From an uncultured Methanobrevibacter sp. (GTDB taxonomy: Archaea > Methanobacteriota > Methanobacteria > Methanobacteriales > Methanobacteriaceae), in contig NZ_CAMVPN010000009.1 in NCBI RefSeq assembly GCF_947169325.1, positions 1 through 45,961 on the forward strand: a DNA stretch of 45,961 nt, written 5' to 3'. The translations under genes and the position numbers were made by a program. The notes beneath the pieces were generated by a model that was not told the origin of the DNA, made no database searches, and was given only the letters and a program-made list of their open reading frames with translations. Positions 43,358 through 45,756 of the stretch are shown one piece after another (the stretch's first letter is position 1; each line of letters opens with the position of its first letter).

Positions 43358-44386
43358 ATGGAATTAATGAGAGAGCTATCCTTGGCACCAGGTGTTTCTG
43401 GAAGCGAAGAGGAAATAGCTAAAATTATTACACGTGAATTAAAGGATGTAGCTGACAAAATTGAAACTGACAGTATGGGAAACCTGATTGCAACCAAAAA
43501 AGGTGAAAAGAAGGCTCCTACTGTAATGCTTGCAGCTCACATGGATGAAATAGGATTAATGGTAAGATACATTGACGATAACGGTTTTATTAAATTCTCA
43601 AACATTGGCGGAATCAATGATCAGATGCTGATGAACCAGACTGTAACCGTACACTCCTCCGTTGGAGAGGACATTGTAGGGGTAATCGGTTCAAAACCGC
43701 CACACGTAACCAAAGCCGAAGAAAAAAACAAGGTCGTTAAGGCTGACGACATGTTCATAGACATAGGTGCAAAAGACAAGGAAGACGCCGAAAAGATGGT
43801 CAGAATCGGAGACAAGATGACCTTCAATTCACTCTTTGTCGAATATCCGAACAACCTTATCATGGGAAAGGCCTTGGACAACCGTGTTGGATGTTACGTA
43901 ATGATGGAAGTCTTAAAAAGAGTCAACACCAGAGCTACCGTTTACGGTGTTGGAACCGTGCAGGAAGAAGTGGGCCTTAAAGGAGCTAAAACCTCCTCAT
44001 TCAAACTGAACCCTGATTTGGCAATTGCACTTGACGTGACACTATCAGGAGACCATCCTGGAATCAAGCCTGAAGAGGCACCTGTCGTAATGGGCAAAGG
44101 TCCTGCAATCATCTTGGCAGACGCCAGCGGAAGAGGAATCCTAACCCAGCAATCTGTAAAGGACATGCTCATCAAAGCAGGGGATGAAAACGACATCGAC
44201 TATCAGCTTGAAGTCAGTGACGGCGGAACCACAGACGGAACTGCAATTCACCTGACCCGTGAAGGTATTCCAACAGGTGTTTTATCAGTGCCTACCCGTT
44301 ACATACACACTCCGGTAAGCGTGTGCAGTATGGACGATATAGAATCAACCATACAATTGATTACAGCAGCTATAAACAACTTATAG
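43358..44386 (+). CDS. M42 family aminopeptidase (glutamyl aminopeptidase/deblocking type)
   Basis: A 342-residue metallopeptidase. The zinc ligands are in [10 protein letters not shown] (His61, Asp63), ALDNRVGCY (Asp), [10 protein letters not shown] (the Glu pair), [10 protein letters not shown] and a His near the C-terminus (YIHTPVS). Family members form 12-subunit tetrahedra and degrade peptides from the N-terminus. GGTGAT precedes the ATG. It is followed by a T-rich tract and the DUF4062-like gene after 35 bp. Confidence 0.93.
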
Positions 44387-44421: not shown

Positions 44422-45291
44422 ATGCTGAACGGCATAACAATAATGATTGTAAGCACAATCCCGGATATGTTTGCGGAACATTATTACTTTGTTAAACATG
44501 TTTTTCCACAACTAAAAGACATTTGCAGTGAATATGACATTTCTCTGGATTATGTTGATCTGTTTTTTTCCATGTCTGAAGATGAACTCAATAACGGCAG
44601 AACACTTCGCAAATATTTACAGTCAATTGATTTTGACAGGACTTTTTTTGTTTGCTTTAGAGGCCAGAAATTAGGAAGGGCTCCAACATACAAAAGAATC
44701 GATAAGAAGACATTGGATGAATACCCTGAACTTGTTGACTATATTGGGGATATTTCATTTACTGAATTGATTATCATGCATGCCCTGCAGCCATTTGAAA
44801 AGAATAACGATGGAGAACATAAGAATTTACCTCCCGTAAAACATGCTCTTTTCTATTTTAGGGACAGCAAATTCCTGGATAATTTGGATAGTTCTCAAAA
44901 GGAATTTTACACTTCAAACGGCATTTCCGAAGATTCATTCGTGCGTGATTTAAAGCTCGCAATGGCCAAGGATTTGATTTTCAATGAAAAAGAAGAATCC
45001 GAAAATAATGAGAACGGGCCTCATATCAACATTCACAAATACGAAGGAATTTGGGATGATGATTTAAGTTTAATGGAAGTGCTGGACAATTATATCCATG
45101 AATATGCAAGTATGAACAATTTTTCCTATGATTTTCTAAGTAAATTGGGTTCCAGAATTGATTTTGATGATTTAAAAGGGTCTTTCAGTGATTTTAAATG
45201 TGAAGGGAAAGATTTAAAAGAAGTGATGGCTGAAGACTTTTTCAATGAACTGAAATTGGAATTTCCAGATTTATTTGAATCTGTCGTCTGA
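44422..45291 (+). CDS. Stand-alone DUF4062-like protein (STAND N-terminal module)
   Basis: A 289-residue soluble protein. Its N-terminal ~85 residues (ITIMIVSTIPDMFAEHYYFV, then VFPQLKDIC, YVDLFFSMSEDEL, IDFDRTFFVCFRGQKLG) match the DUF4062-type domain that precedes NACHT NTPases in eukaryotic TEP1, NPHP3 and NWD proteins. There the pattern is VFISSTFxDM.aERdyLvkxvFPxL and a DLRWG-like strand. Two later blocks also match those proteins: ISFTELIIMHALQPF and HALFYFRDSKFL, then the final EDFFNELKLEFP. No P-loop follows, so it is the module alone. ATG 44422 is chosen because GGAGAAAT precedes it. The gene lies 35 bp after the M42 gene. Function unknown; a role in defence or signalling is inference. 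Confidence 0.65.
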   Translation: MLNGITIMIVSTIPDMFAEHYYFVKHVFPQLKDICSEYDISLDYVDLFFSMSEDELNNGRTLRKYLQSIDFDRTFFVCFRGQKLGRAPTYKRIDKKTLDEYPELVDYIGDISFTELIIMHALQPFEKNNDGEHKNLPPVKHALFYFRDSKFLDNLDSSQKEFYTSNGISEDSFVRDLKLAMAKDLIFNEKEESENNENGPHINIHKYEGIWDDDLSLMEVLDNYIHEYASMNNFSYDFLSKLGSRIDFDDLKGSFSDFKCEGKDLKEVMAEDFFNELKLEFPDLFESVV

Positions 45292-45756
45292 TTTTTGGGA
45301 TTTGGCCTTTTTGTGTTTTGTTTCAAACCATCCGATTTTTAGCTCGTCAATGGTATCCTCATATAATTGGGGCACGTACGGTTTGATGTCAAGCAGCGGT
45401 GTTCCGTCCAGAACGTCAATGTTTTCAACGCAGACCTTGTTGTCCTTGACATCGATTACTTTAACGACGCTCATTCCAATCCTGTTTGGCCTTTTGGGAG
45501 ATCTTGTTGCAAACACTCCATGAGTGTTGTCGTCCATAAAAGGTTTGACTTCAAGCATGTATCCGTCCACTTTGTGAAGCAAATATATTATGTGAATATG
45601 TGAGAAGTCTTTAAGGTCTTTTAGCCCATCTGCATATTTGTCTTTAATTTCTATTGTTCCCTTGACTCCTTTTGCACCAGTTGGTTGAATTGGCATGCCT
45701 TCTATTTCTTTGAATTCTGTATGAATTGTGCCTATTGATTCCATTTCGATTTTCAT
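45271..45756 (-). CDS. tRNA (adenine37-N6)-methyltransferase TrmO/TsaA-like
   Basis: A 161-residue protein of the TrmO (YaeB/TsaA, COG1720) family, which methylates N6 of threonylcarbamoyl-adenosine at tRNA position 37 with SAM. The motif is FATRSPKRPNRIGMS, with YLLHKVDGYMLEVKPF before it and VLDGTPLLDIKPYVP after. It is free of the C-terminal extension seen in bacterial TrmO. ATG 45756 or 45744 could be the start; the upstream TTG at 45771 is less likely. Its 3' end overlaps the convergent DUF4062-like gene by 21 bp. Confidence 0.88.
   Translation of the reverse strand: MKIEMESIGTIHTEFKEIEGMPIQPTGAKGVKGTIEIKDKYADGLKDLKDFSHIHIIYLLHKVDGYMLEVKPFMDDNTHGVFATRSPKRPNRIGMSVVKVIDVKDNKVCVENIDVLDGTPLLDIKPYVPQLYEDTIDELKIGWFETKHKKAKSQKSDDRFK

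What the first reader, a model, noticed from the sequence alone, without database searches (positions are those of the whole stretch)
44422..45291. Stand-alone archaeal protein matching the DUF4062 module of STAND NTPases
The frame matches in three separate blocks the N-terminal module of TEP1/NPHP3/NWD-type proteins: SxxPDMFAEHYYFVKHVFPQL with a later VDLFF strand, TELIIMHAL...HALFYFRD, and a C-terminal DFFNELKLEFP. No NACHT P-loop or repeat region follows, and the protein ends near where the NTPase would start. DUF4062 domains are TIR-related and have been linked to conflict and signalling systems. A free module in a methanogen could act as effector or adapter in trans.
Basis: partly seen in the sequence, partly recalled or inferred. 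Interest (0 to 1): 0.72.

Follow-up and report, generated by a model that had tools for sequence, protein, structure and literature searches.

The report
Dead NAD-cutting domain in gut methanogens
Gut Methanobrevibacter carry a free-standing copy of a domain that in human TEP1 and bacterial anti-phage proteins destroys NAD+, but these copies have all lost the catalytic glutamate while staying under selection, so the domain was probably freed from an immune-type receptor and reused for binding or regulation.

Summary
The ORF at 44422-45291 (289 aa, Methanobrevibacter) is homologous to the DUF4062 domain of TEP1 (PDB 11gz, E 1e-9 alone, 1e-16 as a family). Over its whole length it matches the N-terminal module of DUF4062-NACHT-WD40 receptors of the same genus (best E 4e-46). 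It is a real stand-alone gene: 24 intact 280-291 aa copies in 17 of 67 genus genomes form one clade (support 100/100), with dN/dS about 0.04-0.11. The window copy lies between an M42 peptidase and TrmO, a junction that is bare or differently filled in most relatives.

The "effector" reading is not supported. A 2026 preprint shows that DUF4062 domains are TIR-like NADases needing one glutamate (TEP1 E1008). All 24 stand-alone proteins lack it (Ile117 in the window; A/T/S/I/M/V/L across the family) and have lost the DLRWG motif. 22 of 24 receptor-type relatives keep the glutamate. The best reading is a domesticated, fast-diverging pseudo-NADase that acts by binding, as regulator, decoy or adapter. 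Its partner is unknown; two genomes over 90% complete carry it without any other detected DUF4062 protein, so a homologous receptor is not obligatory. Not found in phages or viral contigs. New variant of a known kind.

The parts
44422..45291 (+). Stand-alone DUF4062-type TIR-like protein, 289 aa, predicted pseudo-NADase
   Evidence: open frame with ribosome-binding site; TEP1 homology; 24 intact family members in one clade
44428..44910 (+). TIR-like core, residues 3-163
   Evidence: alignment to TEP1 11gz residues 5-178 and AlphaFold2 secondary structure
44557..44571 (+). DLFFS, residues 46-50, in place of the DLRWG motif at the start of the BB loop in receptors and TEP1
44770..44772 (+). Ile117 codon, in place of the catalytic glutamate (TEP1 E1008)
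   Evidence: ungapped alignment TELIIMHAL / TEMEVM / TEMEIEHAL; role of E1008 from PMC13174449
44935..45288 (+). C-terminal part of the module, residues 172-289, matching the region between TIR-like core and NTPase of the receptors
43358..44386 (+). Flanking M42 aminopeptidase (context, not part of the system)
   Evidence: PF05343 E 3.7e-107
45271..45756 (-). Flanking TrmO-type tRNA methyltransferase, convergent (context, not part of the system)
   Evidence: PF01980 E 3.6e-40; adjacent to M42 in many relatives without the gene

Best explanation
The gene encodes a TIR-like DUF4062 domain. It was released once from a TEP1-like receptor (NADase domain, NACHT-type NTPase, WD40 propellers) in a clade of gut Methanobrevibacter, lost its NAD+-hydrolysing glutamate and the BB-loop motif, and was kept as a separate pseudoenzyme. 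SHOWN: homology, stand-alone state, single clade, absence of the glutamate in every member, purifying selection, insertion into an otherwise simple M42-TrmO junction. INFERRED: direction of change (receptor to stand-alone) and inability to hydrolyse NAD+. INFERRED, weaker: it works by binding, either hetero-oligomerising with active TIR-like NADases (decoy, brake or scaffold) or binding an NAD-derived nucleotide or a viral trigger as a sensor. Estimates: domain identity 0.97; catalytically dead as a NADase 0.85; function by binding or regulation, given that, 0.7; partner specifically a DUF4062/TIR NADase 0.25.
For: TEP1 DUF4062 homology; full-module match to receptors with PF13271 + NTPase + WD40; catalytic Glu in 22/24 receptor-type rows and 0/24 stand-alone rows, with seven different residues at that position amid invariant neighbours; DLRWG and ER motifs lost, new invariant residues gained; one clade 100/100 on a tree built without those columns; dN/dS about 0.04-0.11; confident model with strand/helix order as expected for a TIR-like domain; NADase biochemistry of DUF4062 and need for the Glu (PMC13174449).
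Against: No biochemical test. Pseudoenzymes can use migrated residues. Foldseek against the PDB did not return a TIR structure. No conserved partner or operon was found; the TPR neighbour is genus-wide and co-occurrence with receptors is weak. Outside G029 and G012 absence of receptors is hard to judge in incomplete genomes.
Confidence: 0.6

Rival explanations
1. Still an active effector: a NADase, or another NAD/nucleotide N-glycosidase, with a relocated catalytic residue, killing or arresting the cell when triggered.
For: The core is well conserved and E115, two residues before the catalytic position, is invariant; the parent family is a NADase family (PMC13174449); fast divergence is common in defence genes.
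Against: E115 corresponds to TEP1 E1006, which is equally invariant in the relatives that keep E1008, so it is probably structural; the DLRWG and ER motifs are lost as well.
Confidence: 0.12
2. Adapter or brake that works in trans specifically with the full-length DUF4062-NACHT-WD40 receptors of the same cell.
For: Same module, and TIR-like domains act as oligomers (PMC13174449); mild enrichment of receptors in genomes with the gene, 6/15 against 4/35, Fisher p 0.048.
Against: G029 and G012 have the gene but no detected receptor and no PF13271 protein; the enrichment is uninformative once relatedness is considered; never found next to a receptor.
Confidence: 0.2
3. Decaying remnant of a receptor gene without function.
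For: The catalytic residue is lost; one copy (L041, G012:C4) is broken by a stop.
Against: 24 intact copies of nearly equal length in one clade, strong purifying selection, two copies kept side by side (L046, L051), and new invariant residues.
Confidence: 0.03

Closest known systems
DUF4062 TIR-like domain of human TEP1 (vault NADase; PDB 11gz; PMC13174449)
   Same: Homologous over residues 5-178 (E 9.7e-10; profile 1.1e-16); same conserved blocks, including ST..DM..E, G...G..P, TE and YFRD.
   Different: Catalytic E1008 replaced (Ile117), DLRWG motif replaced, stand-alone instead of being part of a NACHT-WD40 protein.
Full-length DUF4062-NACHT-WD40 receptors of Methanobrevibacter and relatives (e.g. 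L055, L056, L058)
   Same: Whole stand-alone protein aligns to their N-terminal 270-325 residues (E 4e-46 to 5e-23).
   Different: Receptors keep the Glu and DLRWG and carry NTPase and propellers; stand-alone proteins form a separate clade with a long stem.
Swarozyc (KpSwz), bacterial anti-phage DUF4062 system (PMC13174449)
   Same: Short protein built around a DUF4062 TIR-like domain without NACHT.
   Different: KpSwz has a portal-sensing AUX domain and needs E97; here the Glu is absent and the C-terminal part is that of the archaeal receptors.

Membership tests
DUF4062 / TIR-like domain (as homologous fold) | Significant sequence relationship to a DUF4062 domain | tested here: met
   TEP1 11gz E 9.7e-10, profile E 1.1e-16; genus receptors with PF13271 above cut-off match at 4e-46
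DUF4062 / TIR-like domain (as homologous fold) | Pfam PF13271 gathering score | tested here: not met
   no hit for P0001 or any of the 24 stand-alone proteins
DUF4062 / TIR-like domain (as homologous fold) | TIR-like alpha/beta fold | tested here: inconclusive
   confident model (pLDDT 87.7, pTM 0.87) with fitting order of strands and helices, but Foldseek against the PDB listed no TIR; 11gz itself could not be superposed
DUF4062 TIR-like NADase (enzyme) | Catalytic glutamate (TEP1 E1008 / KpSwz E97) | tested here: not met
   Ile117 in the window, absent in 24/24
DUF4062 TIR-like NADase (enzyme) | NAD(P)+ hydrolysis | not testable with these tools
   needs an enzyme assay
STAND receptor (TEP1/NWD/NPHP3 type) | NACHT-type NTPase followed by WD40 or TPR repeats | tested here: not met
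   protein ends at 289 aa, no P-loop motif, no such Pfam hit
Swarozyc | Portal-sensing winged-helix AUX domain | tested here: inconclusive
   C-terminal part aligns with the archaeal receptors' linker region; the AUX fold itself was not compared
Swarozyc | Active-site Glu needed for defence | tested here: not met
   absent

The most novel reading that the evidence does not exclude
A lineage of stand-alone pseudo-NADases, domesticated from a TEP1-like immune receptor, that restrains or tunes NAD-depleting immunity in gut methanogens, or serves as an NAD/ADP-ribose sensor.
Probability: 0.3. Interest if true: 0.75.

Novelty: new variant of a known kind. Interest (0 to 1): 0.55.

Why it matters
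DUF4062 was reported as a NADase family only in 2026 (PMC13174449). A whole conserved clade that lacks the catalytic residue, next to relatives in the same genus that keep it, is a natural experiment on what the domain does besides catalysis. It may also bear on human NWD1, NWD2 and NPHP3, which showed no NADase activity in that study. The family is missed by Pfam, NCBIfam and PADLOC, so it is probably annotated as hypothetical in methanogen genomes.

Tried and rejected
Pfam, NCBIfam and PADLOC scans of P0001: nothing meaningful; the BACK_BPM_SPOP hit (E 0.0035, below cut-off) is taken as chance. Virus or phage origin: no relative in IMG/VR or INPHARED. Plasmid origin: only a Chloroflexota full-length receptor. 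TPR gene as dedicated partner: found in 47 of 67 genomes, with or without the stand-alone gene. Co-occurrence with receptors or any DUF4062: weak and not decidable on the marker tree. Remnant/pseudogene: rejected by dN/dS. Foldseek against the PDB: no TIR hit, uninformative. The GTG start at 44323 (322 aa) is rejected because it overlaps the M42 gene and the family starts at the ATG. The first attempt used a wrong frame.

Full report
WHAT IS THERE. The ORF 44422-45291 (+, 289 aa) starts with ATG behind an AAAGGAG site, 35 bases after an M42 aminopeptidase, and runs convergently into a TrmO-type gene. The window is a complete contig (C9) of a 2.6 Mb, 145-contig genome. Related loci with named records are all Methanobrevibacter, several titled as goat or roe deer gut isolates.

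IDENTITY. P0001 itself gets no Pfam DUF4062 hit, no NCBIfam hit and no meaningful PADLOC hit. Against all PDB sequences it finds one relative, TEP1 11gz_A (E 9.7e-10), and as a family profile E 1.1e-16. In the same genus, proteins of 1389-1781 aa carry PF13271 above cut-off followed by AAA_22/NPHP3_N/NACHT-type NTPase and WD40 propellers (four such proteins scanned). Most align to P0001 from about residue 5 to 283-288 (E 4e-46 to 5e-23; L064 in two pieces). The stand-alone protein is therefore the complete N-terminal module, including the part after the TIR-like core. AlphaFold2 gives a confident model (pLDDT 87.7, pTM 0.87) with alternating strands and helices, a helix-containing loop after strand 2 and an insertion before helix 113-122; TEP1 is described with an extended BB loop holding a helix and a loop-helix-loop next to helix C (PMC13174449). 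Foldseek against the PDB returned only weak Rossmann-type hits and no TIR among those listed, so the fold is inferred mainly from homology.

STAND-ALONE FAMILY. 24 intact copies of 280-291 aa, plus one broken copy (L041), occur in 17 of 67 genomes of the genus; none of this type was found elsewhere in 152 genomes of the phylum. They fall at three recurrent sites: (A) M42 peptidase - gene - TrmO (window type); (B) methionine synthase region - gene - tetrapyrrole methylase; (C) upstream of an HTH-cupin regulator and an AMP-binding enzyme, sometimes as two copies. A few further copies lie singly. The M42-TrmO junction is a bare 20-50 bp in many relatives without the gene; in others it holds different single genes, so it is a small insertion spot. 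All stand-alone proteins form one clade (100/100) with a long stem (1.48) in a tree built without the trait columns (the program warns of long branches). dN/dS is about 0.04-0.11 in close pairs with finite dS. Yet the gene diverges several-fold faster than its neighbours: dN 0.09-0.32 against 0.01-0.04 (M42) and 0.03-0.09 (TrmO) in the same genome pairs; synonymous sites are near saturation, so ratios are rough.

LOSS OF THE CATALYTIC RESIDUE. Osinski et al. (bioRxiv 2026, PMC13174449) show that DUF4062 domains are TIR-like NADases. KpSwz needs E97; TEP1 needs E1008, with R908 and R976 contributing. Chain position + 893 gives TEP1 numbering for 11gz (Arg at 908, 954 and 976 and Glu at 1008 all fit; this offset is my inference). 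E1008 is then the second Glu of TEMEVM. The alignment here is ungapped: TEP1 TEMEVM, receptors mostly TEMEIEHAL, stand-alone mostly TEL[ATSIMVL][IVM].HA[LI]. The catalytic position is E in 22 of 24 receptor-type rows (exceptions L066 and L124; the 24 include short or cut rows L059 and L117) and in 0 of 24 stand-alone proteins, where it shows seven different residues amid invariant neighbours. The DLRWG motif (R 24/24, W 23/24, G 23/24 in receptors) and the ER of the first helix (24/24) are also lost. Conversely S50, T74, R80, L84, A180, A182, D184 and D272 are invariant in the stand-alone set and not the rule in receptors. This is the pattern of a pseudoenzyme with a new constraint, not of decay. 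The rows are related, so the loss counts as one event. E115 is no convincing substitute: it is equally invariant in active-type relatives.

HOW IT MAY WORK. With the NADase residue gone, action by binding is the most economical reading: contact with other TIR-like domains, an NAD-derived ligand, or a viral or host protein. Two genomes over 90% complete (G029, G012) have the gene but no detected receptor and no PF13271 protein; G018 and G037, less complete, are the same. A homologous receptor is therefore not obligatory. Enrichment together with receptors is weak (Fisher p 0.048; any DUF4062 p 0.062) and uninformative once relatedness is considered. The TPR neighbour at site C is widespread in the genus and not a dedicated partner. 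No relatives in viral contigs or phages.

COMPARISON. By homology it belongs with the DUF4062 TIR-like fold. By defining features tested it is not a member of the NADase enzymes (Glu absent), not a STAND receptor (no NTPase or repeats) and not Swarozyc (Glu absent). No paper found describes a stand-alone or catalytically dead DUF4062 lineage in archaea (library limited to open-licence PMC).

VERDICT. Observation confirmed; the effector reading is not supported; best explanation is a domesticated stand-alone pseudo-NADase with a binding role. New variant of a known kind, interest 0.55.

Noticed in passing
L055 3057-6494, L061 2-3484, L065 3-3935, L056 9704-12217, L058 1184-3646; fused in L060 5077-10176 and in the window's own genome L068 6153-9746: Full-length DUF4062 receptors lie next to right-handed beta-helix proteins without an obvious signal peptide (often starting MG[FIL]FDKFKN); a similar beta-helix region is fused to the N-terminus of the receptor in L060 and L068, which suggests a functional link.
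   Followed up: partly
L126 8178-10463 and L127 5418-9000: In two genomes of another genus of the family, the gene upstream of the receptor looks Hsp70-like by its N-terminus, with a kinase-like frame further upstream in L127; judged by eye only.
   Followed up: no
G109 (L117, L118, L120-L125, L128): One genome of the same family holds about 15 DUF4062 module matches, most in long receptor frames, two of them next to each other in L117.
   Followed up: partly
L059 6842-7699: A 285-aa DUF4062 protein in G041 that keeps the catalytic Glu and lies outside the stand-alone clade: a second, independent short form or a truncated receptor.
   Followed up: partly
M42-TrmO junction, L130, L142, L148, L149, L154, L170, L178: In genomes without the stand-alone gene the same junction sometimes holds another single gene (139-aa, 177-178-aa or 96-aa frames), so it is a small insertion spot.
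   Followed up: partly
genus-wide, e.g. G004:C1:2199696-2199950, G022:C14:108496-108750: A separate DUF4062 family of about 470-500 aa with strong PF13271 scores occurs in many genomes of the genus; its other domains were not examined.
   Followed up: no
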